In this document: positions 9,371 through 21,302 of the stretch, piece after piece
How the letters are laid out: the number at the start of each line of letters is the position of its first letter
Numbering within the stretch: position 1 is the first letter of the stretch
DNA from: Oscillospiraceae bacterium
GTDB lineage: Bacteria; Bacillota; Clostridia; Oscillospirales; Acutalibacteraceae
Reading direction: 5' to 3'
Assembly (NCBI GenBank): GCA_003514385.1
Contig: DOQR01000004.1
Coordinates: forward strand, 517,036-581,035
DNA length: 64,000 nucleotides
The notes under the pieces: generated by a model
What the model was told of the DNA's origin: nothing
The model's database searches: none
The model's input: only the letters and a program-made list of their open reading frames with translations
Made by a program: the position numbers and the translations under genes

Positions 9371-9466
9371 TCAGCGAAGTTCTAAGATGCGGCATATCGC
9401 AGCTAAAACCGCCGCGAGATAAAGCCCGAAGATATTCATTATATTATAGAGAAGTGCCGTTATCAT
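9371..9466 (-). CDS. 31-residue single-helix membrane peptide
   Basis: This ORF starts at an ATG six bases after a GGAGG ribosome site and overlaps the last 23 bases of the holin gene. The product is one hydrophobic helix (ILLY-type start, central GLYLAAVLAAIC) ending in charged residues. It is the last reading frame before the operon terminator. It may be an accessory lysis peptide or a small toxin; neither can be shown from sequence. A non-coding reading remains possible. Confidence 0.45.
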   Translation of the reverse strand: MITALLYNIMNIFGLYLAAVLAAICRILELR

Positions 9467-9734
9467 CTTCGCCCTCCGCTATGCGCTGTTCGTGCATGAA
9501 TTTGTCCGCTTCGATGGCGGCAGAAGTGAAGCTGTTGTTCTTCCAATAGCTCACAGCGCCGACAATGAATGTGAATATCAAACTTATTATTGTATATAGC
9601 TCGCTGTATTCGACGCTGACCGGTGTTTTTCCGAATGCGGTCAGCGCCACATTGACTATTGACACAAGAGACAAAATACCTCTGACCCACGTGCCGACCG
9701 ATATTTTTGTTATATTTTCAAAAAGCTTCTTCAT
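9444..9734 (-). CDS. phage holin, SPP1 family
   Basis: A 96-residue protein with two hydrophobic helices separated by a short turn, and the SPP1-holin pattern: a basic N-terminus, then GTWVRGILSLVSIVNVALTAFGKTPV, a second helix ending in YWKNNSFT, and a charged tail. Holins form membrane lesions that release the endolysin. It lies 11 bases downstream of the XhlA-like gene and follows the amidase gene, completing a lysis cassette. Confidence 0.88.
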   Translation of the reverse strand: MKKLFENITKISVGTWVRGILSLVSIVNVALTAFGKTPVSVEYSELYTIISLIFTFIVGAVSYWKNNSFTSAAIEADKFMHEQRIAEGEDDNGTSL

Positions 9735-9745
9735 GAAAATCCCCC

Positions 9746-9964
9746 TTATTTTCTGCGCGTGATATCATCTATGCGCCTGTGCGCGGATTTTATCGAATCC
9801 TCTGCCGCCGCCATGCGCTCAACGAGATTATTGTGCTTGTCGACCCGCTTTTCGAGCTGCGCGATGCGGTAATTCGTCAGCCTGTTCGACGCGAGTATGC
9901 CGCCGAGCGAGCCGATGAGCGTACCCGCCGCCGAGAGCAGTGCCACAGTTATTTCTGCGTTCAT
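9746..9964 (-). CDS. XhlA-like holin-associated membrane protein
   Basis: A 72-residue protein with one N-terminal hydrophobic helix (about residues 5-27, TVALLSAAGTLIGSLGGIL) followed by a coiled coil rich in heptads (IAQLEKRVDKHNNLVERM). This layout matches small XhlA/haemolysin-like proteins that work with the holin. The start at MNAEI follows GGAGGTGTGAG; the longer upstream reading overlaps the amidase gene and is not credible. Confidence 0.75.
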   Translation of the reverse strand: MNAEITVALLSAAGTLIGSLGGILASNRLTNYRIAQLEKRVDKHNNLVERMAAAEDSIKSAHRRIDDITRRK

Positions 9965-9965
9965 C

Positions 9966-10943
9966 TCACACCTCCTCGAGACTGCCGACCGCGACCCAGC
10001 TCGAAATATCGCCGAGCAGGGCTTCGAGCGTGCCGCGGTTCTGCTGAACTTTTGTGACGGTGTGCTTTTTCGGCGAGAGCTGTGAATCCGGCACGCGTTT
10101 TCCGCGCGCCGAGGTGCAGCCGCCGTAGACGGCACCGGGCTTTATAAAAACAACGCTCCCGACCGAAACTGACGGTCTCGCCGCGAGTTTCAAGTCAGAG
10201 AGCCTGACCCAAGAGTTTATCTCCTTGAGCAGCGCGCGGCTCGGCTCAACTTTTGCGACGGTATGCGTTCTGAGCTTCACCCACGACGGAACGCGCTGAC
10301 CCGTGGCATAGTTTTTGCCTGTGATTTTCACGCGGTCGCCCGCTCTGATATCGGCGGACTGCGCGACTTTTTGCGGTTTGTTTTTTACGCAAAGCCTGTA
10401 AAATTCGGCTATCGACGCGGCAATCGATTCGCCGCACTTTTTCTGTCCCGCTTCCGTTTCGACATTCTTTCTGTCCGAAGAGCTGTCTATGAACACGGTC
10501 TCGATGAGCAGACTGCGGCACCCGACCGAGCGGACGAAACCGAAATAATCGCCGCCTGCGGAATTGAGCTTCGTTTTAGCTCCCCTGTCGCGCAGTGAAA
10601 ATGTTTTCGCAATGCCCGCGCTTATCTTCGCGGCGAGCTTTTTGCCGTCCTCGTCGGCGTGTTTATAATAGACCTCGCTCCCCGTTCCGCCGCCTGCATT
10701 CAGATGAATCTCGGCAGCCAGATCGAAGTTCTCGCGGTTGACATAAGCTATCCTGTCCGTCAGATACATATCGGCATCGTAGTTTATGAGCACGGCGTCG
10801 CAGCCGTAATTTTTGAGCGCTTCGGCGATATAAAAGCCAATCTTTCGCGCTATGCGAAACTCGTGGAAGCCTCCGCCAACCGCGCCGCTGTCATAGCCGC
10901 CGCCCGCCGATTTTCCGTGACCCACGGATATACAAATTCTCAC
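9966..10943 (-). CDS. N-acetylmuramoyl-L-alanine amidase (endolysin)
   Basis: A 325-residue protein starting at GTG seven bases after GAGGAGG and overlapping the upstream stop codon. The N-terminal 175 residues form an Amidase_3 domain with the zinc ligands in VGHGKS (His9) and FHEF (Glu28), a later histidine in AEIHLNAGGG and the catalytic glutamate in LLIETVF. Two SH3-like repeats follow (about 185-245 and 260-325, each with DRVKI/GSVVF-type starts and SWV ends), which would bind the wall. It cleaves the amide bond between muramic acid and the stem peptide during lysis. Confidence 0.92.
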   Translation of the reverse strand: MRICISVGHGKSAGGGYDSGAVGGGFHEFRIARKIGFYIAEALKNYGCDAVLINYDADMYLTDRIAYVNRENFDLAAEIHLNAGGGTGSEVYYKHADEDGKKLAAKISAGIAKTFSLRDRGAKTKLNSAGGDYFGFVRSVGCRSLLIETVFIDSSSDRKNVETEAGQKKCGESIAASIAEFYRLCVKNKPQKVAQSADIRAGDRVKITGKNYATGQRVPSWVKLRTHTVAKVEPSRALLKEINSWVRLSDLKLAARPSVSVGSVVFIKPGAVYGGCTSARGKRVPDSQLSPKKHTVTKVQQNRGTLEALLGDISSWVAVGSLEEV

Positions 10944-11368
10944 TCTCGCACCTCCTCGAAATAAATGCCCACAAGCTGCGACGGCAGATAGTGCATGACC
11001 GTGCCCTCGCCGCCGCTGTCGTCTCTTGTGCATCTGTAAATTTTGCCGCCGTCGAGATAGTACTTGTCTTTAAAATACCTCATGCCCTCGGCGGCGGTTA
11101 TCGGGTTGTCTATCGTGCCATCTTCATCTGCCGTCACACGCTCCCAGTGCGCGGGAGTCACGCTCGGTCTCCATGTGGGATTGGCGGATATTGCGTTGTA
11201 GCAGCGGTAGAGATTATCGCCGTCGCGCACCCTGTCGCCGATCGAGTAATCCTTTTCGCCGCTCCACAGTGCAAACAAATCGACACTCGTCAGAGCCTCG
11301 GCGTTTGTCAGCTTCGCGGCGGCTCTTGTTATCATCTCGCGGAAGCGTTTTGCCTGCGTCCTCGTCAT
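10940..11368 (-). CDS. phage protein with CBM5/12-like binding module
   Basis: A 142-residue protein. Residues 38-80 (YSIGDRVRDGDNLYRC, NPTWRPSVTPAHWERV) match the aromatic pattern of the small chitin-binding-type modules found in phage fibre proteins. A second similar Y..GGKIYRCT unit follows. It overlaps its neighbours by four bases on each side. It probably belongs to the fibre/adhesin set; assigning it to particle or host surface is an inference. Confidence 0.7.
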   Translation of the reverse strand: MTRTQAKRFREMITRAAAKLTNAEALTSVDLFALWSGEKDYSIGDRVRDGDNLYRCYNAISANPTWRPSVTPAHWERVTADEDGTIDNPITAAEGMRYFKDKYYLDGGKIYRCTRDDSGGEGTVMHYLPSQLVGIYFEEVRE

Positions 11369-11652
11369 ATATCCGCGCCTCCCGTAATTATTTCAAGCGC
11401 CTCGAAGTCGGAAATAAGATCGTCATTCTGCGGCACTTCGTTCCAATGCTGAATTATCGTGTCGTCGGTCTGAATCCAATCTGCCGCATAAATTTTGCCA
11501 TCAGACGGATAATCTGCAAATTCAACGGGCTTATAGCCGTTGGCGAGATACACCCGCGGGTCATTTGTAAAAACATCCCAGCCATCGGTTTTAAGCGGCG
11601 TCGGAGCAATATATAACGCTCCGTTTTTTAATTTACCGTACAATCCTGTCAC
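11365..11652 (-). CDS. small phage fibre-region protein
   Basis: A 95-residue protein of unknown fold. It has the stretch FTNDPRVYLANGYKPVEFADYP and ends in a short acidic tail, a composition seen in small proteins coded beside phage fibres. It overlaps the flanking genes by four bases and is clearly part of the operon. No catalytic motif is visible. Confidence 0.6.
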   Translation of the reverse strand: MTGLYGKLKNGALYIAPTPLKTDGWDVFTNDPRVYLANGYKPVEFADYPSDGKIYAADWIQTDDTIIQHWNEVPQNDDLISDFEALEIITGGADI

Positions 11653-12314
11653 CCCTCCGAATATTCACTGATACCTTTTATCTTCGCCGACAGCGCCGCC
11701 CAATTCGAATCGGCCTTATAACTGTCAACAAGGTTATCCGGCACATAAATATACCCCGTGCCCGATGCTATCTTGCTTCCGCGCAGCGCAACCGAAATGT
11801 CGGATATCACACAAACGGACGGAGTGCGGATAATGAGCGTTTCAAGGTGTTGACAGTCGGTAAACGCCGTTCGGTTTATATTTGTTACCGCCGCAAAATC
11901 GGCTGTCCGAATTGCCGAGCTGCGAAAGGCATTATTAGGCAAAGCCGTAACAAGAGGTAGGTTTGCAGATGTCAGATATGTCGCCACATGAAAACACCCG
12001 TCTCCTATTGTTGTCACCAAAGGGAAATCAGCTTGTTGTATTGCAGAGTTTGTAAAAACCCCGCTTCCCAAATCGGTGGCCTTGGGAAGATTTATTGTCT
12101 GTAAGCGATTGCACGACTCAAAAGCATTTCGTTTAACTTGAGTAACATTCGGCAAATCAATCGCTGTAAGAGCATTGCATCCTAAAAATGCGCACGCTCC
12201 GACCGTCGTTATACGGTCGTTTGAATATGCGCCCGATATAGTACGCTGGATTATTGCATCCTCGCAAGACATCGGGATATCCGCATCCTGCTGCATCAAA
12301 AGTCTTCTGCTCAT
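11649..12314 (-). CDS. BspA-type leucine-rich repeat protein of the phage cassette
   Basis: A 221-residue protein of about six repeats of 20-23 residues of the LRR_5/BspA type, with the pattern TxIGxxAFxxCxxLxxIxLPxV (for example CAFLGCNALTAIDLPNV and AFESCNRLQTINLPKA). Such repeats are common in surface proteins of gut Firmicutes and occur at tips of some phage fibres, where they may bind host receptors. It has no signal peptide, which fits a particle component rather than a secreted adhesin. A C-terminal tail carries YIYVPDNLVDSYK, as in other BspA proteins. Confidence 0.85.
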   Translation of the reverse strand: MSRRLLMQQDADIPMSCEDAIIQRTISGAYSNDRITTVGACAFLGCNALTAIDLPNVTQVKRNAFESCNRLQTINLPKATDLGSGVFTNSAIQQADFPLVTTIGDGCFHVATYLTSANLPLVTALPNNAFRSSAIRTADFAAVTNINRTAFTDCQHLETLIIRTPSVCVISDISVALRGSKIASGTGYIYVPDNLVDSYKADSNWAALSAKIKGISEYSEG

Positions 12315-13123
12315 GCGTTGTCACCAACCTTCTGTGCAACTATCACGCCGTCCTTTACACTTATCTCCCAAGTTTCGCCGTTTTGAAACGCCGGAACACT
12401 GCCGATATACTTCGTGCCTGCAGGCAGCGATACGGTGATATCGCCGCTTGCCGCGAAGCTCAGGCGCATCCAGCACTCGAATTTCTCATCCTCCGGGTAT
12501 CGAACCGTCAGCGTCCGAAGTTCCGTCATGCGATATTCCGCGTTGTCGGCGAGCGTTGCGGACACCTGTGCGGTGCTGTAGGTATATTGGGTAAGCGAAG
12601 CCCGCGGAGTAAAGCCAAGGGAATTTATTATGACTGCCTTTAAATCGGTCGTCCCGCCGAACAAGGCTTTTAAATCCCGCATACTCTCCACTGCGGCGGC
12701 GAGTTCGGGCAGGATGCCGCACTCCTCTTCAAGCTCGCCGTCAATACCCATAACAGACGGCTCAAAGCCGAGAGTGAACACAGCGGACTTTGTTATTCTC
12801 GTCACCTCAAGTTCGTTGCGCTTATGCGCCTCGACCTGAACGGTAAGTTCGCCCGTTGACGTCAGTGCCTCGGGCAGAGGGCAATATATAACACCGCCGG
12901 TGACATAGGCGGGAGTGCTGTTTGCTCCGCTGATAATATTTGACACGATGCGGCGGCTCAGCCCGTAGACATCGAAGCTCAGAAGATAATACGAAGCATC
13001 CGTTTTCAGCTCGTCGTTGAGCGTGATACAAAGCCGCGACGCATTATGCTCCCCGCAAAAACAGAACGGCTCTTCAATCTGAGCCGTCCCGTCCGAAAGT
13101 ATTTTTATTTTTATATCTCTCAT
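12311..13123 (-). CDS. baseplate/fibre protein with BppU-like N-terminus
   Basis: A 270-residue protein. The first 120 residues (MRDIKIKI, repeated beta strands, YVTGGVIYCPLPEALTSTG, VEAHKRNELEVTRITK) resemble the BppU N-terminal domain that attaches receptor-binding proteins to phage particles. A short helical linker (ELAAAVESMRDL) and a C-terminal beta-rich domain follow. Its last codon overlaps the LRR gene, suggesting that the LRR protein is its partner. In this cassette no baseplate hub is present for it to attach to. Confidence 0.7.
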   Translation of the reverse strand: MRDIKIKILSDGTAQIEEPFCFCGEHNASRLCITLNDELKTDASYYLLSFDVYGLSRRIVSNIISGANSTPAYVTGGVIYCPLPEALTSTGELTVQVEAHKRNELEVTRITKSAVFTLGFEPSVMGIDGELEEECGILPELAAAVESMRDLKALFGGTTDLKAVIINSLGFTPRASLTQYTYSTAQVSATLADNAEYRMTELRTLTVRYPEDEKFECWMRLSFAASGDITVSLPAGTKYIGSVPAFQNGETWEISVKDGVIVAQKVGDNA

Positions 13124-13356
13124 CTGTTTTCCTCCCCGGAATAGTTGTCCTTGAGATAATTTGCCGTTTCCAGAACATCCCTGCGCTCTCTATAGAGCAC
13201 ATTGAGCAGAGTTTTTATCTTATATGCCTCGTCGCTCGTCTCGGGATTCGGCAGAGCCGAAAGCTGCTTTCTTTTCTTTGCTATGATCCCGTCGAGCACC
13301 TGCGCCTGCTCGAAATATTCGTCGGCAAGCTGTGAAAGAGTTCTGTTGAAAGTCAT
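13120..13356 (-). CDS. small coiled-coil protein of the phage cassette
   Basis: A 78-residue, highly charged, all-helical protein with heptad-like spacing (LADEYFEQAQVLDGIIAKKRKQL, LLNVLYRERRDVLETANYL). It is translated just after the regulator gene, which it overlaps by four bases. Similar small helical proteins accompany phage sigma-like activators, but no function can be assigned. Confidence 0.65.
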   Translation of the reverse strand: MTFNRTLSQLADEYFEQAQVLDGIIAKKRKQLSALPNPETSDEAYKIKTLLNVLYRERRDVLETANYLKDNYSGEENR

Positions 13357-13985
13357 TTGTCTTCTCCCTTCAAAAGATAGTCAACCGTTGTGTCGAAAAA
13401 TCCGGCAAGCTGTGCGAGCTGATGCAAAGTCGGCTCTTTTTCGCCGCTCTCGATCATTCTGAGCGTCCTCATCTGCATCCCGAGCGCATCGCAGAGCAGC
13501 TGTTCGCCTATGTTCTCGCTGCACCGAAGTTTCTTTATCCGTCCGCCCATGGTGTTCGGCTCATATCGCTTTGCCGCGCTCACGGCGAGCGCGCGCCTGA
13601 CGGCTATCGGCAGGAAATCAACGGATTCTATATCATGCTGATACTTTACAGTGAAGCTCAGCGCGTCATATATTTTCCTCTGCGCCTTGTCGAGACACCG
13701 CGACACGCTCGACGGGCATACACCCAATTTCTGAGCTATCATAGATATCGTCGAGCCGTCAAACCAATATGCCTCCGTGACCTGTCTCTCGCGCGGCGTA
13801 AGCCTTGTTTTTATCACCTCGTCGGCGAGCGCAGACAGGTCAACATCCCTGCGCCGCCACGCATAGTCGTCCGGCGATTCGCAGCCCGGGCAGTGAGATC
13901 CGCAGCAGACGCACATCGCCGCCCGCCGCTCTTCAGGAGTCGGAAACGAGAAATCCATCGCCGCCTCGACACTTCTTTTTGACAT
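13353..13985 (-). CDS. sigma-70 region 4 / XRE HTH fusion regulator
   Basis: A 210-residue protein with two DNA-binding domains. Residues 62-108 (LTPRERQVTEAYWFDGSTISMIAQKLGV..VSRCLDKAQRKI) form sigma region 4, which reads a -35 element; no region 2 is present. Residues 150-207 (IKKLRCSENIGEQLL..MQMRTLRMIESGEKEPTLHQLAQLAGFF) form an XRE-type helix-turn-helix. A cysteine-rich stretch lies at 25-35. The ATG at 13985 was chosen because AAGGAG stands eight bases upstream; the earlier ATG lies inside the SOS box. It recalls the PBSX activator Xpf combined with an Xre-like domain, and is probably the switch of the cassette. Confidence 0.85.
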   Translation of the reverse strand: MSKRSVEAAMDFSFPTPEERRAAMCVCCGSHCPGCESPDDYAWRRRDVDLSALADEVIKTRLTPRERQVTEAYWFDGSTISMIAQKLGVCPSSVSRCLDKAQRKIYDALSFTVKYQHDIESVDFLPIAVRRALAVSAAKRYEPNTMGGRIKKLRCSENIGEQLLCDALGMQMRTLRMIESGEKEPTLHQLAQLAGFFDTTVDYLLKGEDK

Positions 13986-14005
13986 TTGCTCATCTCCTTG
14001 CTTTT

Positions 14006-14019
14006 CGAACATTTGTTCG
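14006..14019. promoter_or_regulatory. LexA/SOS box
   Basis: CGAAC-ATTT-GTTCG is a perfect inverted repeat with the Gram-positive LexA (DinR) core GAAC-N4-GTTC. It lies about +8 to +21 relative to the predicted start site of the sigma4-XRE gene, between promoter and ribosome site, where a bound repressor would block transcription. Confidence 0.8.
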
Positions 14020-14033
14020 TATCTTTACTTATA

Positions 14034-14062
14034 ATTATAGTAACACATCAAATATTTGTCAA
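14034..14062 (-). promoter_or_regulatory. consensus promoter of the sigma4-XRE gene
   Basis: On the minus strand TTGACA (14057-14062), exactly 17 bases, then TATAAT (14034-14039): a perfect housekeeping promoter. It sits in the only long gap (13986-14175) inside the phage cassette. Confidence 0.9.
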
Positions 14063-14175: not shown

Positions 14176-15015
14176 TTATATTTTTAGCGCAATGTATATA
14201 TAGGTCATACCCAGCGCATTGAGAAGATTTTTGCTCCCGTTAACATCGCTCGCCGAACTGATACTGAAACCGTCGGAAGAGATGCTGAGTCCGGGCATAC
14301 CGCCCGCCTGAGTCGCGGCGGCAACATAGCAGTTTGTTGACGAGTCCGAAAAATCAGCTATAGCGGCGGGCATACTCCTGCAAAAAACAAATACGGCGGT
14401 GGGCTTGAAGCCGACTTTTACAGAACGGCTTTTTGCACCCGTGCCCGTATATGAGCCGATTTTTACAGGCGCGTTCCACAGAGCCTTATCCTCGGCGGTG
14501 ACATGCTTGACGGTATCGCGGATATGCGAGCCGCAGAGCAGGGTCTTGTCGAGGAAGCAGTGGAAGTTGAGCCCGGTCGTGTCTGCGGGGCAGAAATCCG
14601 CCTGCATGAGTATATATGCGTCGAGGACAAAGGCGTCGGTGTCCCTGTCCGCCTTGATGCCCGAACAGCCGGACTCGACAACGTTCAAATCTGTGTCGAA
14701 GGTCAGGCAGTCGATTATAGTCGTCAGCACATCGTGGCAGGCAGCGCCGCCCCTGCTGTAAGGGACATGGATGGCAAGCTTTATCTTTATAGTTGCGAGG
14801 CGGCAGTATTCGTTCTTTATCAGCACACCCTCGTCGTTTTCGGTGAAGCTGTCCACTATTTCCATCTCCCCTATGCCCACGGCAACGGTGACGCGCTTTA
14901 GGGGTATCTCCTTTTTGACGGCGGGATATTCGGTTATGAATCTTATCCCGCCGAGACTTGTCTGCTCGGAAAGCCAGCCCGCTATCTGCGAGGGCAGAAC
15001 ACTTATTGTACTCAT
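14176..15015 (-). CDS. tail-terminator-like domain fused to a fibre-like C-terminus
   Basis: A 279-residue protein of two unlike halves. Residues 1-145 resemble a tail-terminator or tail-completion protein (beta-strand pattern, DVLTTIIDCLTFDTDLNV, AYILMQADFCPAD), which fits its place after the connector genes. Residues 155-279 carry HIRDTVKHVTAEDKALWN and GSYTGTGAKSRSVKVGF, patterns typical of tail-fibre C-terminal domains. The join lies where a normal phage would have all tail genes, so an in-frame deletion of the tail module is likely. The stop is followed by the gap holding the regulator promoter. Confidence 0.65.
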   Translation of the reverse strand: MSTISVLPSQIAGWLSEQTSLGGIRFITEYPAVKKEIPLKRVTVAVGIGEMEIVDSFTENDEGVLIKNEYCRLATIKIKLAIHVPYSRGGAACHDVLTTIIDCLTFDTDLNVVESGCSGIKADRDTDAFVLDAYILMQADFCPADTTGLNFHCFLDKTLLCGSHIRDTVKHVTAEDKALWNAPVKIGSYTGTGAKSRSVKVGFKPTAVFVFCRSMPAAIADFSDSSTNCYVAAATQAGGMPGLSISSDGFSISSASDVNGSKNLLNALGMTYIYIALKI

Positions 15016-15066: not shown

Positions 15067-15402
15067 TTATTCCGTTATCTCGACGACCGTCCGCACGACC
15101 GCCCAGACATAGAGCACCTCTTCACCGAACTTTATCTTCTCCGCGCGGTCTATCTGATATTTTATATCGCCGTCGATTATCAGCGCGTCCTCGTTGACCG
15201 TCAGGTCATGCTCGGGCGGACCGATATAGAGATAATAGCCCTGCGAATTGTAGCCTATCTCGGTGTTCACGCCGTAGAGATACATCTTGTTCTTGTATCT
15301 CAGCGGCTGAATAAAGCCCTTGAACGGCGCGGTTCTCGTGGAGTCGGTATTCTCGATAACGAGCACCCTGCCCCACTTTTCAAATTCCGCCGAGAGGTTC
15401 AT
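15067..15402 (-). CDS. head closure / connector protein
   Basis: A 111-residue, beta-rich protein without helices of note. It carries PLRYKNKMYLYG and YYLYIGPPEHDL, with the size and position of phage head-closure or minor capsid proteins that follow the head-tail connector. It overlaps the upstream gene by four bases. The family is inferred mainly from gene order. Confidence 0.6.
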   Translation of the reverse strand: MNLSAEFEKWGRVLVIENTDSTRTAPFKGFIQPLRYKNKMYLYGVNTEIGYNSQGYYLYIGPPEHDLTVNEDALIIDGDIKYQIDRAEKIKFGEEVLYVWAVVRTVVEITE

Positions 15403-15783: not shown

Positions 15784-16788
15784 TCAGACGGTAAGGGTGC
15801 GGGCGGCGGAGTCGAATATCCTTGCGAAGCCCGCAGTCGAGCTGATGACCGCACGCTCAAGCTGGCGGTCGATGAGCTTGTCATACTCGGTGGAGACGGG
15901 GCCTGTGGTGACCATTTCGAGGGCGCAGCTACGGTCGATACCGATTATCTTGCCTGCGGGCACGCAGGAGCCCTTTATAAGATCTGCGCCGAGGGGAGTT
16001 ATGACTTCGCCCGTCGCGTGGAAATTGAGCCCTGCCGCAGCATCCCTGAACTCAGTAATGCCGAGCATCTGCGCGACCTGTGCGGGAGCGGCAATAATCG
16101 TGTTGAGTTCATATGGATCGAAGAGATTCCAGAAATTGACAAGGTCGGTGTAGGTGAGCTTGCCTGCGGATGCGACGGCGGTGTTGGAGGCGGCGTTATC
16201 ATTGCCATCGCCGTTTATGAGCACATCGACTGCATCGCTGAGCTGAGTGCGCGCGATATATGCGCCGATCTGGCGCAGGGTGACGGTAAACAGATCGAGG
16301 CGCTGGAAGCGGACAGCCTCGTAAGAAGCGACAAGCGAGCGTCCGCGCTTTTTCAGATGAACAAGGTTCGCCTTGCTCTTGACGCTGGTTTCGGGGATAA
16401 ACGCGCCCTCGGCGACGACTTTGAGTTCCTTTTCATCGTCGCTCGGCTCGCAGGCTATCGAGCGGTAGTCGAGTGAGTCTATAATCGTGGTTGATGCGAC
16501 GATGCGCGGCAGGACATTTGCCTCCTGCATACCCTGTCTGACGGCGCGGGAAACATACTCTGGGAAGAGCACGGCGGAGTCGGAGGTCTTGAAGAACTTG
16601 TCAACAACGTCGCTGCCCGCTCCGCTGACCTTGATATCAAAGCGTTTGAGCTGGCGCTGATATGCGTCAAGACCCTCAAGAGCGGTGCCGCTGTAGTTCT
16701 CCGAGGGGTCGATTTTTTCGAGTGCGCCGGTGAAATCACCGGAAGCATAGAGACCTTTTTCAAGTCTGATGTTATCAAAAGCAGTCAT
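15784..16788 (-). CDS. major capsid protein (HK97 fold)
   Basis: A 334-residue protein with the layout of HK97-type coat proteins: an N-terminal helical arm, then FPEYVSRAVRQGMQEANVLPRIV, an E-loop region, a long spine-helix region (RLDLFTVTLRQIGAYIARTQ), and the A-domain ending in RQLERAVISSTAGFARIFD. It starts after AAAGGAGAATAAT and follows the decoration gene. All features expected for a functional shell protein are present. It would build the DNA-filled capsid. Confidence 0.85.
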   Translation of the reverse strand: MTAFDNIRLEKGLYASGDFTGALEKIDPSENYSGTALEGLDAYQRQLKRFDIKVSGAGSDVVDKFFKTSDSAVLFPEYVSRAVRQGMQEANVLPRIVASTTIIDSLDYRSIACEPSDDEKELKVVAEGAFIPETSVKSKANLVHLKKRGRSLVASYEAVRFQRLDLFTVTLRQIGAYIARTQLSDAVDVLINGDGNDNAASNTAVASAGKLTYTDLVNFWNLFDPYELNTIIAAPAQVAQMLGITEFRDAAAGLNFHATGEVITPLGADLIKGSCVPAGKIIGIDRSCALEMVTTGPVSTEYDKLIDRQLERAVISSTAGFARIFDSAARTLTV

Positions 16789-16806: not shown

Positions 16807-17151
16807 TCAGAGCATGAAGCTCACTGTTTTGGCGGTTGTGTTGACGCTGAGCACGAGATAGGTGTTGCCCTTTGTGCTCGCCTTGACTCCATACGCGCCG
16901 TCCGATGCGAGAGCCGCATAACCGACCGCCGGGGCGTCCGTGCCCGTATAGGGCATAGTGACAACACCCGAGAGCTGGACGCCCGCATATCCGCCGTTTA
17001 CATTCACGCTGACGCCGCAGAACTTTGCGTCCGCGCCTGCCGCCGAAACGGTATCGTTTGCGCTGACCGCGACGGGCACGCCCGCCTTGAGTCCGCTTGC
17101 CGCCTTGAGAGTTAAAACATTCTCACAAAAACCTTTAGTTGAAACTGACAT
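16807..17151 (-). CDS. capsid decoration protein, DUF2190-like
   Basis: A 114-residue beta-rich protein with the typical LKAASGLKAGVPVAVSANDTV and later YGVKASTKGNTYLVLSV patterns of DUF2190/head-decoration proteins, which bind the outside of the capsid and stabilise it. It sits between protease and capsid genes, its usual position, behind a GGAGGATAATT ribosome site. Confidence 0.75.
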   Translation of the reverse strand: MSVSTKGFCENVLTLKAASGLKAGVPVAVSANDTVSAAGADAKFCGVSVNVNGGYAGVQLSGVVTMPYTGTDAPAVGYAALASDGAYGVKASTKGNTYLVLSVNTTAKTVSFML

Positions 17152-17163
17152 AATTATCCTCCT

Positions 17164-18114
17164 TTAAATTCTGAACTCGCTGTTGCCCGAATGTGTTTCG
17201 GGCTTTGTCGACGAGAGCTGGCTGTTGAGTTTTCCGCCGCCCGAGAAAGCCTTTTTGAGCTCTCTGAGCTGTTCGAGACCGAGGGTGCCGCATATCGCCG
17301 AGAGGCTCTCGCCGCGCATATCCGGCAGAGCCGCCGCGCCCATGCGTATCACATCGCATATGAGCTCCTCGCGGTACTCTTTGCCCTCGCGGGCGAGCTG
17401 TTCGAGCTCGTCGATATAGCCGTAGAGCCCCGCCGCCTCCGCCTTTGTGAGAGTCACTCCCTCATTGGCGCAGGAGAGGCGTTTGACTGTTTTCACCGTC
17501 TGCTCGTCCGCGCGGTAAGACTTCGTAACGCCTGCCGCGGGCTGAGCCGGCACGGCAACAAACGACCACTCATAGGCGTCCGTCGGGTCGCAGAGTATCC
17601 TGTGGCAGAGCTTGCCGCCGTACTCCCTACCCTTTATATGGGCGCACGGATCGGTTCGCCCGTCCTTGCCGCAGATTGAACAGACGCTTCTGCCAACCGA
17701 GCAGCCGACACTCGTCTCTTTCTTTATCCCCGCGTCTATCTCTTCAATAAGCGCGGCGTTCTTTTCGCTGCGCGGCATATAGGCTCTCGCGCAGAGCTTC
17801 GTGTATTTTTCGCCCGCCGAGGTCACTTTGCTCTCGTCTGTCTCGACGCGGCAGGAAAATATCCTCGCCGTCTGATCCCTGCCGCTCATGCTGTGGTCGA
17901 ATATCCCCGTCTTGCCTACAAAAAGTTCGGCGAGCTTCTCGAGCGCGGGAATATCGAAGCGCTCGAAGTCCCTGTCGATTTCATTGTCGCAAAGCACGAT
18001 GCCGAAAGTATAGACCTCGTCGGCGCTCAGCGGCTTTACGGTATAATTGTTGATAAGCTCCAGCTCCTGCGGAGTCGGAGCACCTGAAAGAACGCTGTTC
18101 TGCGTAGTTATCAC
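17164..18114 (-). CDS. prohead protease / scaffold protein
   Basis: A 316-residue protein. The N-terminal 190 residues are a prohead-protease-like domain (GIVLCDNEIDRDFERF, IFDHSMSGRDQTARI, ending WSFVAVPAQPAAGVTK). It carries a cysteine/histidine insert (GCSVGRSVCSICGK..DPCAHIKGREYGGKLCH) that may bind zinc. The C-terminal 120 residues are helical and probably act as scaffold. The GTG start overlaps the portal stop. The exact catalytic residues could not be assigned. Confidence 0.7.
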   Translation of the reverse strand: MITTQNSVLSGAPTPQELELINNYTVKPLSADEVYTFGIVLCDNEIDRDFERFDIPALEKLAELFVGKTGIFDHSMSGRDQTARIFSCRVETDESKVTSAGEKYTKLCARAYMPRSEKNAALIEEIDAGIKKETSVGCSVGRSVCSICGKDGRTDPCAHIKGREYGGKLCHRILCDPTDAYEWSFVAVPAQPAAGVTKSYRADEQTVKTVKRLSCANEGVTLTKAEAAGLYGYIDELEQLAREGKEYREELICDVIRMGAAALPDMRGESLSAICGTLGLEQLRELKKAFSGGGKLNSQLSSTKPETHSGNSEFRI

Positions 18115-19259
18115 TCCCCGTTTTCAATCTCTTTCCTGATTTTTTCCGCCTGCGCCGCATAGAGCTCGGCGCGCGCAAGCTCAACATTGTCCTGAAGAGT
18201 CACATCGTCCCACTCAGCCGTCACCTGCGAGGGCGTTCCCTCGAAGAGCAGATATGTGCGGCATATGCGCTCGATGACGGGTGTTAAAATGCGGCGGTAT
18301 GCGTCGATCTCGCTGGTGAGCACGTCCGCCTGCTGGGTCGACATGCGTTCCGTCGACGACCATGACAGGCCGAGCATGAACGGCGGAAGCCCCGTTTTCG
18401 CGACTATCTGTTCGAGCATCTGGCGCACGGGCACCTCGCTGTCGAGAATCTGATTGTCCGCGCCTATGACCTTTATCTGAACATCGCCGACGGCGACAAA
18501 ATCTTTTACCGCGCCGCCCGTCTGCATCGCCTCGCTCCATTCCTTTGCCACCTGCATGGCGCGCTCTTTGGCGTATGCGCGGTCGAGCGAGTCGTTCTGC
18601 GGCTTATATGTGACCGCAAAGCGGATGTTCCCCATGCGCTCCCAATTGAGCCCGATAGTCTTGTAGATTTTCATGAGTATCCCGCTGACAAACGGCAAGC
18701 CTTTGAGCATCGAACAGCCGCAGACTTCGCCCGGCTGCGGGTTGAGCACGGACAGCAATACAAGCTCGGGTCGCCTGACCGGCGACGGCATACCGACGCA
18801 CGAGGCGGAGAAGATATCCACTCCGACTCCGTCCGAGGCGCGGCGAAGCTCGATGTTTTCGAGCGGAGAGTTAAAGAGCGCCGCGATATGCCCGTCTGCG
18901 TCCGTCACCATCTCGCCGACCGCCGTGCCGCAGGTCAGCAGCTGCTCGAAATAGGTTGAAACAAAGCTTTCGAGTCCGCACTGGTTGCCGCCGACGGGGA
19001 CATTGCGAACGAAATGGTCGAGCTTATGCTGCAGGCGTTCGTCGGCGCATCTGACTTCAAAGCCGCCTGTCAGGCGGACGGTTTTGAATATGGCGGCGTC
19101 GATTATCGGCACCGCTTCGCGCAGGGCGTAATAGAGCCGCGTCTGATTTCCGCCGAGCGGAGTGTAGCTGTCGAGCAGTCCGAGACCCGACGCAGGGCGC
19201 GCCGAAGTCTGCACCGCCGCAGGCTCGGGAACGGTTTTCTTTCTTTTGAACGGATTTAT
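18111..19259 (-). CDS. phage portal protein with probable ATA start
   Basis: This protein forms the dodecameric DNA gate of the capsid. It shows portal features: FEVRCADERL, AVGEMVTDADGHI, PLENIELRR, a long helix region with NWERMGNIRFAVTYKP, and the crown helix WSSTERMSTQQADVLTSEIDAYRRILTPVIE. The first ATG/GTG/TTG in frame is GTG at 19214, which has no ribosome site. An AGGAGG stands seven bases before an ATA codon at 19257-19259, and reading from there gives the basic I-N-P-F-K-R-K-K start common in portals. The coordinates follow that choice (382 residues); with GTG it would be 367. Confidence 0.82.
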   Translation of the reverse strand: MNPFKRKKTVPEPAAVQTSARPASGLGLLDSYTPLGGNQTRLYYALREAVPIIDAAIFKTVRLTGGFEVRCADERLQHKLDHFVRNVPVGGNQCGLESFVSTYFEQLLTCGTAVGEMVTDADGHIAALFNSPLENIELRRASDGVGVDIFSASCVGMPSPVRRPELVLLSVLNPQPGEVCGCSMLKGLPFVSGILMKIYKTIGLNWERMGNIRFAVTYKPQNDSLDRAYAKERAMQVAKEWSEAMQTGGAVKDFVAVGDVQIKVIGADNQILDSEVPVRQMLEQIVAKTGLPPFMLGLSWSSTERMSTQQADVLTSEIDAYRRILTPVIERICRTYLLFEGTPSQVTAEWDDVTLQDNVELARAELYAAQAEKIRKEIENGE

Positions 19260-19298: not shown

Positions 19299-20573
19299 TC
19301 ATCTGCTCATGGCGAGCGCGAAAAAGCCGTCCTCTTCGTGCGCGAGCACTGTGGAGACGAAATAGCGCACATCGTCCATGGCGTGGTCGTATTCCTTTCT
19401 CGGAGCATCGCGTGCGGCAGTGTTATCCCATCTGTAGAGGGAAAATTCCCGAAGGCAGTCCGTGCATGACTGCGAGAAAAGGATGCGCCGCTCCTTGAGG
19501 GCATCCGAAACGCGGCGGATGCCGTCTATAACGTCGTTTTTTGCGGGCACGGCGCGGAATCTGCCGTGGCGGCGTATACATTCGAGAAAGCTCGCGGCGG
19601 AGGGGTCGGCTATGACCGCCTCTATGTTGAGGTCGCCCGCAAGCTGTTCGAGCGCGGCGTAATGCTCCTCGTCGGTGCGCTGCTCACCCTCCCTGCGGCT
19701 GTCGAAATAATATTCGTTCAGCCTGTACCACCGTCCGCCGTACTCGCCCCAGAGTCCGAACGACGACGGGTTGACCGTACCGTAATCGCAGGAGATGAAG
19801 TAGCGCGACGGTATGCCCTCAGGCTCCGCGACATGAACCGAGCGCGAAAAGAATGGATAGACAAGCCCCTGCGCCGCGACCCATTTGCCCAAAACGAAGC
19901 GGTCATAGAATGCGCCGCTGTAAAGACTCTCGTATCTGCGCTTTATTGCGGGCGTGAGCGACGGATTGTCATCCATGGTGAAGTGGAGATACAGACAGTT
20001 TTTCTCTCCGCTCTTTTTTATCCACTCCTCGTAGAACCAGTGCAGAGGCGTGTCGGGGTTGCAGTTGAACCACAGTTTAGACCCGTCGAGCGAGCAGCGC
20101 GCGAGAGCCTGTTCAACAAACGACCGCGGCATCAGGGCGACCTCGTCGAGCAGAACGCCGCCGAGCGTCATGCCCTGAATGAGCGCCGCCGAGCCCTCGT
20201 CCTTGCCCCCGAAGAGGTAAAAGCGGTTGCGCCTGCCGGAGTATTCTATCTCCACCAGATGCTGAGACAGCTTCTCGCGGCAGTCGAAGCCGAGCCGGCG
20301 CAGGACGGGCAGAATCGGCGTGATTATGTTTCTCCTAAGCGAAGTCACCGTCTTGCCGCACAGCGCAAAAGATGTATCGTCAAACGCCGAAAACGCCCAC
20401 GCGACAAATGAGACGGACATACACACCGTCTTGCCGGATCGCACCGCGCCGTCGCAGATTATCGCGTCAAAATTTCTGTCCGGGCTCGACGGGCACCACC
20501 ACGAGAGCACCCGAAGCTGCTTTTCCGAGAAGCTCTCAAAAGTGTTATTTTTGCGTTTACTCACCCGCATCAT
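19299..20573 (-). CDS. terL: terminase large subunit
   Basis: A 424-residue DNA-packaging motor. The ATPase domain shows Walker A GAVRSGKT (residues 42-49) and Walker B GVLLDEVAL. The nuclease domain keeps its acidic residues in FISCDYGTVNPSS, AVIADPSAASF and YDHAMDDVRYF. Both activities therefore look intact. The start MMRVSK overlaps the end of terS in a different frame; longer readings run through terS and were rejected. An intact TerL argues that this cassette is not simply dead. Confidence 0.93.
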   Translation of the reverse strand: MMRVSKRKNNTFESFSEKQLRVLSWWCPSSPDRNFDAIICDGAVRSGKTVCMSVSFVAWAFSAFDDTSFALCGKTVTSLRRNIITPILPVLRRLGFDCREKLSQHLVEIEYSGRRNRFYLFGGKDEGSAALIQGMTLGGVLLDEVALMPRSFVEQALARCSLDGSKLWFNCNPDTPLHWFYEEWIKKSGEKNCLYLHFTMDDNPSLTPAIKRRYESLYSGAFYDRFVLGKWVAAQGLVYPFFSRSVHVAEPEGIPSRYFISCDYGTVNPSSFGLWGEYGGRWYRLNEYYFDSRREGEQRTDEEHYAALEQLAGDLNIEAVIADPSAASFLECIRRHGRFRAVPAKNDVIDGIRRVSDALKERRILFSQSCTDCLREFSLYRWDNTAARDAPRKEYDHAMDDVRYFVSTVLAHEEDGFFALAMSR

Positions 20574-21051
20574 CCCCGCGCAGAGCACGCGCACTGCGGT
20601 CAAGCGCGGTCAAAAAGTCCGGGTTCTCACCTGCCGAGGCGGCGTTACTCAGCTCGCAAAGTCGGTCGAGCGCTTTGAGTCGATCGAAAAATTTGACCTC
20701 TATTCCCCCGCTCTTCGGGCGTTTGATATCCGATATCATCGTCAGGTCCAGTTTTTCTATCTCCGACCCGTCCGGCAGCTCGTCCGACAAAATGAGCTTC
20801 ACCGCGTCCGCAACGCTCCCGAAAGCGAGCCTGCGGTAGCCCTCCGTGACTTCCGCCAGCTTCGCGTCGCGCTCGTTTTCAAGATTCGCTATTCGCCGTT
20901 TGATTTCCGGGTCAGCGAGCAGCTTCATCGCCGTTCGCTCCGGGTGGACGGAATAGCCCGCCCGCGCAGCCGACGCGCGCGGTTCGCGGGACGCGACAAA
21001 GAAGCGGCAAAAAATCTCCTCTTTCGGCGAAAGCGGTTCTTTCTTTTTCAT
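20557..21051 (-). CDS. terS: terminase small subunit
   Basis: A 164-residue protein of the Terminase_2 type: the N-terminal DNA-binding part has PKEEIFCRFFVASREPRASAARAGYS and NPE-like DPEIKRRIANL, and the rest is helical for oligomerisation. It recognises DNA for packaging initiation. It is the first gene of the structural operon, with GAGGAGATGAGAGT before the ATG. A 46-base inverted repeat lies 73 bases upstream. Confidence 0.88.
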   Translation of the reverse strand: MKKKEPLSPKEEIFCRFFVASREPRASAARAGYSVHPERTAMKLLADPEIKRRIANLENERDAKLAEVTEGYRRLAFGSVADAVKLILSDELPDGSEIEKLDLTMISDIKRPKSGGIEVKFFDRLKALDRLCELSNAASAGENPDFLTALDRSARALRGDDAGE

Positions 21052-21124
21052 ACTCTCATCTCCTCATCTATATTCACGTGCTCTTCGGCGGCGGTCTCCG
21101 AAGCGCCCGTCACCCATAGCGAAA

Positions 21125-21170
21125 ACGCCCCGATTTTTTGCATATCGGCGTGCAAAAAACGGCGGGGCGT
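21125..21170. repeat. 46-base two-part inverted repeat upstream of terS
   Basis: ACGCCCCG (21125-21132) pairs with CGGGGCGT (21163-21170), and inside it TTTTTTGCA (21134-21142) pairs with TGCAAAAAA (21151-21159). On the minus strand the outer stem ends in TTTT, so it could act as an attenuator in the terS leader or as a binding site. No housekeeping promoter was recognised between it and terS. Confidence 0.55.
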
Positions 21171-21302
21171 CAATAAAGTTCATATTTTATTAATATTTAT
21201 AGAAACAAAAAGTCTGTTTTCGCCTGTTTTCAGGCATTTTTCGGCTGATTTTCCCCGTTTTCGGTGATTGCCGCCGATTACGCAAGATTTTTGCTCTTTT
21301 GC

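What the first reader, a model, noticed from the sequence alone, without database searches (positions are those of the whole stretch)
13986..14062. SOS-controlled switch inside a phage-derived cassette
A perfect consensus promoter (TTGACA-N17-TATAAT) and a perfect LexA box (CGAAC-ATTT-GTTCG) drive a gene for a sigma4-XRE fusion in the only long gap of the cassette. The box lies just after the predicted transcription start. This would couple expression of the fibre and lysis genes, and through the activator perhaps the packaging genes, to DNA damage without any CI-type repressor.
Basis: partly seen in the sequence, partly recalled or inferred. Interest (0 to 1): 0.85.

Follow-up and report, generated by a model that had tools for sequence, protein, structure and literature searches.

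The report
SOS switch of gut gene-transfer particles
A DNA-damage-controlled promoter appears to sit in front of the regulator of virus-like particle genes that gut bacteria seem to have kept for packaging their own DNA, so DNA damage may turn on particle making and cell lysis.

Summary
A consensus promoter and the palindrome CGAACAAATGTTCG lie where stated, before a sigma4-XRE gene that likely starts at 13985, not 14012. By comparison the box is a LexA box: in relatives it precedes lexA (core in 26 of 30), Pol IV-type and DNA-repair genes. Of 30 orthologous regulator promoters 20 have it with at most 1 mismatch (shuffles 0.22), although the proteins share about 32% identity. The cassette is not an ordinary prophage: it is two operons, head/packaging and regulator-fibre-lysis, on different contigs in 33 of 34 relatives, with one capsid gene per genome, no recognised integrase, and distances that follow host RpoB. 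This matches the two-operon Faecalibacterium agent FpGTA (PMC12946183), for which I found no regulator described. Eleven of 30 relatives also have a divergent CI-like S24 repressor with its own operator; the window has neither. Best reading: host LexA directly represses the activator/lysis operon of an FpGTA-like gene transfer agent. LexA binding, induction and activation of the head operon are inferred. LexA control is not universal: 6 of 30 regulator promoters lack the box, and so does nearly every sampled capsid-bearing genome without the full regulator.

The parts
14006..14019 (.). LexA box CGAACAAATGTTCG (palindrome), downstream of the -10
   Evidence: same box at orthologous promoters, lexA, Pol IV-type and repair genes
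14057..14062 (-). -35 hexamer TTGACA
14034..14039 (-). -10 hexamer TATAAT, 17-bp spacer
14045..14058 (-). possible decayed older LexA box in the spacer
   Evidence: 10 of 14 identical to the box of G001 in the same register; suggestive only
13994..13999 (-). ribosome-binding site AAGGAG
13353..13985 (-). regulator: conserved Cys-rich N-terminus, sigma-70 region 4, XRE domain (210 aa)
13120..13356 (-). 78-aa conserved second gene of operon II
   Evidence: no family match; conserved beside the regulator
12311..13123 (-). fibre/baseplate-like protein
   Evidence: no family match; conserved in operon II of several relatives; role inferred by position
11649..12314 (-). BspA-type leucine-rich repeat protein
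   Evidence: PF13306
11365..11652 (-). small protein of unknown role
   Evidence: no family match
10940..11368 (-). protein with CBM_5_12 carbohydrate-binding module
   Evidence: PF02839, phrog_27545
9966..11033 (-). endolysin, Amidase_3
   Evidence: true start probably internal
9746..9964 (-). small XhlA-like protein before the holin (name recalled)
   Evidence: phrog_1863, unknown function; conserved before the holin
9444..9734 (-). SPP1-type holin
   Evidence: PF04688, phrog_263
20557..21051 (-). operon I: small terminase
19299..20603 (-). operon I: large terminase
18111..19214 (-). operon I: portal
   Evidence: phrog_30703
17164..18114 (-). operon I: protease/scaffold candidate by position
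   Evidence: phrog_16951, unknown function
16807..17151 (-). operon I: head decoration candidate
   Evidence: phrog_4588, virion structural protein
15784..16788 (-). operon I: major capsid protein
   Evidence: phrog_3922, PF25209
15399..15884 (-). operon I: connector candidate
   Evidence: no family match; position and conservation
15067..15402 (-). operon I: head-closure candidate
   Evidence: no family match; position and conservation
14176..15015 (-). operon I: terminator-like N-terminus fused to fibre-like C-terminus (inferred)
   Evidence: no family match; alignment; the two parts lie apart in G003 and G143
21106..21184 (-). hairpin plus T-run, then TATGGGTGA, upstream of operon I
   Evidence: candidate control element, not tested

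Best explanation
The site is a direct host-LexA switch of an FpGTA-like gene transfer agent. With intact LexA on 14006-14019, just past the start of a strong promoter, transcription is blocked. DNA damage makes LexA cut itself, and one transcript then carries the sigma4-XRE regulator, the 78-aa protein, the fibre-type proteins, the endolysin and the holin (operon II). The regulator then probably activates the head/packaging operon I, as GafA and GafY do in other agents. Cells make small capsids filled with pieces of host DNA and lyse. Shown by comparison: promoter, box, conservation, two operons, co-occurrence, fit to host RpoB. Inferred: LexA binding, SOS induction, activation of operon I, particle formation and gene transfer.
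For: Box at the orthologous promoter: of 30 loci 12, 20 and 24 have at most 0, 1 and 2 mismatches within 300 bp; shuffles give 0, 0.22 and 2.54. It lies in the promoter spacer in 16 and just past the -10 in 8 of the 24 (read). It is the hosts' LexA box: core AACAAATGTT before 26 of 30 lexA genes; 1 to 4 exact CRAACAAATGTTYG sites per genome in 8 genomes that I chose for their box; sites precede Pol IV-type genes in G330, G019 and G328, a LexA/UmuD-like gene followed by an IMS-domain polymerase gene in G229, and TIGR03916 repair genes in G001 and G103. Where the regulator lacks XRE (G328, G099) the box is still there, and in G099 a second box precedes the 78-aa gene, which lies elsewhere. Agent: 34 of 35 regulator-bearing genomes have exactly one capsid gene, on another contig in 33 of 34; nine-gene head operon complete in 17 of 21 loci, MgtE beside it in 10 of 20; agreement with RpoB: capsid r 0.62 (n 18), regulator r 0.47 (n 24), against 0.47 (n 19) for LexA itself. 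FpGTA has two such operons and yields capsids without visible tails that hold about 9 kb of DNA (PMC12946183).
Against: No experiment. The window's own genome and lexA were not available. Six of 30 regulator loci have no box with at most 2 mismatches; four of these have an S24 gene instead. Of 24 genomes with a capsid match but no full-length regulator, 21 have no CGAACRWAYGTTCG; of the three that do, G019's site is before a Pol IV-type gene, and G099 and G328 had been added because one search showed boxes there. In the order sample only G001 had a full regulator. With LexA as host marker the agreement was weak or absent (capsid r 0.24, p 0.065; regulator r -0.13). Different contigs of draft genomes do not prove distance. 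Sequence homology to FpGTA itself could not be tested. Nothing shows that the regulator acts on operon I.
Confidence: 0.76

Rival explanations
1. The box is the operator of a dedicated CI-like S24 repressor, lost or encoded elsewhere, not of host LexA.
For: 11 of 30 relatives have a divergent S24 gene beside the regulator.
Against: S24 genes go with another palindrome, AATAGTGNCACTATT: at most 4 mismatches in 10 of 11 S24+ loci and 2 of 19 S24- loci (Fisher 2e-5; at most 3: 8 of 11 and 2 of 19). The LexA box is present in 17 of 19 S24- and 7 of 11 S24+ loci. The window has no such palindrome (5 mismatches). The same box precedes lexA and repair genes.
Confidence: 0.08
2. The cassette is a decaying prophage or a capsid-encoding satellite that uses host LexA as an induction signal; the box is a phage trait.
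For: The recognised structural genes are phage-like; a temperate phage repressed by host LexA exists (GIL01, PMC4551915, abstract start). Some IMG/VR relatives carry what look by eye like further tail genes, and L222 has an integrase-like ORF behind the head operon.
Against: No integrase, replication or tape-measure gene recognised in the window cassette; one capsid gene in each of the 55 of 80 genomes that have it (G751, tested later, has two short partial matches); host-type genes (by eye) on both sides of operon I in G001; agreement with host RpoB.
Confidence: 0.14
3. The particles act as SOS-induced killing or lysis devices (PBSX-like) and not as DNA-transfer vehicles; the LexA switch is the same.
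For: PBSX is a Gram-positive precedent, and the FpGTA authors leave this open. Operon II holds lysis and fibre-type genes.
Against: A packaging operon is conserved and no tail-tube gene was recognised; FpGTA particles hold about 9 kb of DNA.
Confidence: 0.2
4. The match is a chance palindrome.
For: GAACN4GTTC alone is expected about once in 64 kb.
Against: Box with at most 2 mismatches at 24 of 30 orthologous promoters against 2.54 in shuffles.
Confidence: 0.01

Closest known systems
FpGTA of Faecalibacterium (PMC12946183; abstract, sections 9, 10, 26 and passages read)
   Same: Two separate operons: terminases-portal-scaffold-capsid, and baseplate/fibre-holin-endolysin; no visible tail; no replication genes reported
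   Different: In the window the two operons are adjacent; a LexA-controlled sigma4-XRE regulator heads operon II; I found no regulator in the parts read; sequence homology not testable here
RcGTA / CcGTA control (GafA; RogA with GafY and GafZ)
   Same: A DNA-binding activator controls the agent; GafA has DnaA-like and sigma-like DNA-binding regions (PMC9638019, passages); RogA is a LexA/CI-like repressor of gafYZ (PMC9632790 and PMC11150451, passages), as the S24 genes here may be
   Different: Different proteins and bacteria; LexA is required for RcGTA by an unclear route; RogA lacks key cleavage residues, whereas 9 of 11 S24 proteins here keep Ala-Gly and GDSM (read)
PBSX of Bacillus subtilis
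   Same: DNA-damage-induced GTA-like element (passage); sigma-like positive control factor (recalled); the short regulator of G328 weakly matches 'positive control sigma-like factor' (E 9e-4, below cut-off)
   Different: A tailed prophage-like element with its own Xre repressor (recalled)
Phage GIL01
   Same: Host LexA directly represses a phage promoter (PMC4551915, abstract start)
   Different: A replicating phage in which gp7 assists LexA; not split between host loci
Predicted LexA site at the GTA cluster of Dinoroseobacter shibae (PMC6473078)
   Same: In-silico LexA box at a GTA
   Different: At the structural cluster, one organism; no family-wide conservation shown in the passages I saw

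Membership tests
LexA (SOS) regulon, Bacillota type | 14-bp CGAACN4GTTCG-type box at the promoter | tested here: met
   consensus recalled
LexA (SOS) regulon, Bacillota type | same motif at lexA and other SOS genes of the hosts | tested here: met
   in relatives; the window's own genome is not held
LexA (SOS) regulon, Bacillota type | box conserved at orthologous promoters | tested here: met
   24 of 30 with at most 2 mismatches
LexA (SOS) regulon, Bacillota type | LexA binding and induction by DNA damage | not testable with these tools
   bench work needed
Gene transfer agent | phage-like packaging and structural genes without replication or integration genes | tested here: met
   on the window's cassette genes; several have no family match at all
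Gene transfer agent | genes spread over several host loci | tested here: met
   capsid and regulator on different contigs in 33 of 34 relatives (draft contigs); adjacent in the window
Gene transfer agent | vertical inheritance with the host | tested here: met
   with RpoB; weak or absent with LexA as marker
Gene transfer agent | packages random host DNA and transfers it | not testable with these tools
   packaging reported for FpGTA; transfer left open there
FpGTA | operon I and operon II gene content | tested here: met
   against the paper's description
FpGTA | sequence homology to Faecalibacterium proteins | tested here: inconclusive
   no Faecalibacterium genome found: recalled 16S probe 0 of 394; none named among the 120 capsid hits listed of 7999
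CI-controlled temperate prophage | CI-type repressor gene beside the switch | tested here: not met
   none found in the window; present in 11 of 30 relatives
Temperate prophage | integrase and replication genes | tested here: not met

The most novel reading that the evidence does not exclude
A family-wide gene transfer agent of gut Clostridia whose activator/lysis operon has been placed under direct control of the host's LexA. Lineages show intermediate states: own S24 repressor only (4 of 30), S24 plus LexA box (7), LexA box only (17). The box has shifted between the promoter spacer and the start site while being kept. This would be domestication by repressor replacement.
Probability: 0.6. 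Interest if true: 0.82.

Novelty: new variant of a known kind. Interest (0 to 1): 0.7.

Why it matters
FpGTA-like particles package host DNA in abundant gut bacteria, and I found no statement of what turns them on in the parts I read of the one paper in the library that names FpGTA. A LexA switch would tie DNA-damaging antibiotics to gene exchange and lysis in the gut. It makes this testable with a single inducer, and would show how a host can take over a phage's control by swapping the repressor.

Tried and rejected
Rejected: chance palindrome; S24 operator; start codon at 14012. Led nowhere: the regulator in viral contigs gave no relative; the order-wide regulator search added no full orthologue but showed short sigma4-only versions, 4 of the 11 examined with a box; a recalled Faecalibacterium 16S probe found 0 of 394. 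Fold search gave no match at E 0.001 or better, and its top rows are XRE-type DNA-binding domains. LexA as host marker gave weak or no agreement (regulator against capsid in the same call r 0.38, p 0.002, n 22); I then used RpoB, and both are reported. The TATRGGTGA element before operon I was partly selected by its own pattern, so I claim nothing from it. One search read minus-strand loci in the wrong orientation; one search corrected this. Literature searches for LexA, gene transfer agents, FpGTA, PBSX and LexA-controlled phages.

Full report
WHAT IS THERE. On the minus strand a consensus promoter (TTGACA 14062-14057, 17 bp, TATAAT 14039-14034) is followed by the palindrome CGAACAAATGTTCG at 14006-14019. 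It is the only 12-of-12 promoter between 9000 and 22000. The gene starts most likely at 13985 behind AAGGAG; the longer ORF from 14012 begins inside the box. The 210-aa product has Sigma70_r4 at residues 61-105 and HTH_3 at 150-204, and a strongly conserved N-terminus among 16 homologues of 61-95% identity. A model has mean pLDDT 74; residues 1-13 and 21-47 are below 50, the two DNA-binding regions mostly above 80. Its top fold hits are XRE-type domains, none at E 0.001 or better.

IS IT MORE THAN CHANCE. GAACN4GTTC alone is not: 1 found, 1.07 expected. The 14-mer CRAACAAATGTTYG with up to one mismatch is found once against 0.09 expected. The strong evidence is comparative. Of 398 genomes of the family of G001, the closest relative with DNA, 353 have some match to the regulator profile, mostly single HTH domains; 35 have long matches at E 6e-18 or better, and 30 of these became loci. 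Within 300 bp upstream of the 30, 12 have a perfect CGAACN4GTTCG, 20 at most one mismatch and 24 at most two; dinucleotide shuffles give 0, 0.22 and 2.54. Mean pairwise identity of the proteins compared is about 32%. In 16 of the 24 the box lies in the promoter spacer and in 8, as in the window, just past the -10 (read; in two of these eight, G380 and G288, the promoter match is weak). G001 has it in the spacer, and the window's spacer keeps 10 of 14 letters of it (170 of 20,000 shuffles did as well). As a negative control, upstream of the small terminase in 20 loci and the window the best CGAACN4GTTCG match has 2 mismatches in 2, and 3 or 4 in 19.

IS IT LEXA'S BOX. All 35 regulator-bearing genomes have lexA above the family cut-off. 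Of the 30 lexA genes fetched, 26 have a site with core AACAAATGTT within 300 bp, 23 of them CAAACAAATGTTTG. In eight genomes that I chose because they have the box, CRAACAAATGTTYG occurs 1 to 4 times each, 20 in all: the regulator promoter in all eight, lexA in six, six others; the reversed control pattern gave 0 or 1. The others: a Pol IV-type gene (G330), a LexA/UmuD-like gene followed by an IMS-domain polymerase gene (G229:C31), TIGR03916 putative DNA-repair genes (G001, G103), a small gene that by eye resembles the one behind Pol IV in G330 (G016:C63), and one not resolved (G229:C12). Perfect sites in G019 and G328 also precede Pol IV-type genes; most of these matches to Pol IV models are below the curated cut-offs.

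IS THERE A CI-TYPE REPRESSOR. None was found in the window. Eleven of 30 relatives have a divergent S24 gene; nine of the eleven keep an Ala-Gly site and GDSM (read). These loci share another palindrome, AATAGTGNCACTATT (10 of 11 against 2 of 19, Fisher 2e-5); one of the two exceptions, G016, has it at 2 mismatches without the gene. The LexA box is found in 7 of 11 S24+ and 17 of 19 S24- loci. LexA box alone is thus the commonest state among the 30.

WHAT THE CASSETTE IS. It is two operons. Operon I, from small terminase to a terminator-fibre-like protein, is complete and contiguous in 17 of 21 fetched loci; in two the last gene's parts are separated by other genes that look by eye like baseplate genes, two are cut by contig ends. 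MgtE lies beside it in 10 of 20 loci with the start of the operon, and in the window. In G001 it stands between MgtE and an epimerase-like gene (by eye). Operon II, regulator to holin, stands elsewhere, with an S41 peptidase within the same 20 kb or less in five of 21 loci. The capsid gene is present once in 34 of 35 regulator-bearing genomes, on another contig in 33 of 34, and once in 21 of 45 genomes without a full regulator; G141, a 0.9-Mb draft, is the miss. Distances agree with host RpoB: capsid Mantel r 0.62, p 0.0005, n 18, nearest neighbour agrees in 14 of 18; regulator r 0.47, n 24, 15 of 24; LexA itself r 0.47, n 19, 11 of 19. With LexA as marker the agreement was weak or absent. This is the anatomy of a domesticated gene transfer agent, and it matches the FpGTA of Faecalibacterium (PMC12946183; I read the abstract, results section 9, the discussion, one methods section and passages): two operons about 125 kb apart in one strain, 40-nm capsids without identifiable tails, about 9 kb of DNA. 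In that text 'promoter', 'repressor' and 'lexa' do not occur, and SOS is mentioned once in general terms. Direct homology to FpGTA was not testable.

HOW IT MOST LIKELY WORKS. Shown by comparison: promoter, LexA box, conservation, operon structure. Inferred: LexA binding blocks the promoter; damage relieves it; regulator and lysis genes are made together; the regulator turns on operon I. The last step rests on analogy with GafA (DnaA-like and sigma-like regions, PMC9638019, passages), GafY/GafZ (PMC11150451, passages) and PBSX's sigma-like factor (recalled).

LIMITS. LexA control is not universal: six of 30 regulator loci lack a box. Of 24 genomes with capsid matches but no full regulator (21; G099, G328 and G751 added because, capsid checked, only partial in G751), 21 lack CGAACRWAYGTTCG; G019's site is at a Pol IV-type gene, so only the two added genomes show an exact box at operon II genes. 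That pattern excluded the CAAAC...TTTG variant.

KNOWN OR NEW. LexA-controlled phages and SOS-induced agents are known, and a LexA site has been predicted at the GTA cluster of Dinoroseobacter shibae (PMC6473078, passages). Purified B. subtilis LexA has been shown to bind a gut-metagenome site before a phage integrase (PMC3998124, passages). A conserved direct LexA box at the activator operon of a gene transfer agent did not appear in the listings of searches. I rate it a new variant of a known kind.

Noticed in passing
window 21106-21184: Upstream of the small terminase a hairpin with T-run is followed by TATGGGTGA; similar TATRGGTGARAG-like elements stand before operon I in several relatives. 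Candidate site for the regulator or for antitermination.
   Followed up: partly
window 14176-15015: Protein that looks like a tail terminator fused to a fibre domain; its two parts are separated by what look like baseplate genes in G003 (L172) and G143 (L180), which hints that a tail was lost.
   Followed up: partly
L187, L190 (G099) and L188 (G328): Short sigma4-only regulators with a LexA box; in G099 the regulator-lysin part and the 78-aa-like gene lie apart and each has a box.
   Followed up: partly
L106 5090-6427 (G001): TIGR03916 radical SAM repair gene near a chaperonin-like gene pair, with two LexA-type boxes in front of it.
   Followed up: partly
L222-L301 (IMG/VR): 276 IMG/VR stretches encode a relative of this capsid protein; of the 80 kept most are on contigs of 4-15 kb, so agent loci may be listed as viruses.
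   Followed up: partly
window 11649-12314 and 10940-11368: BspA-type leucine-rich repeat and CBM5/12 proteins inside operon II, candidate receptor-binding parts.
   Followed up: no
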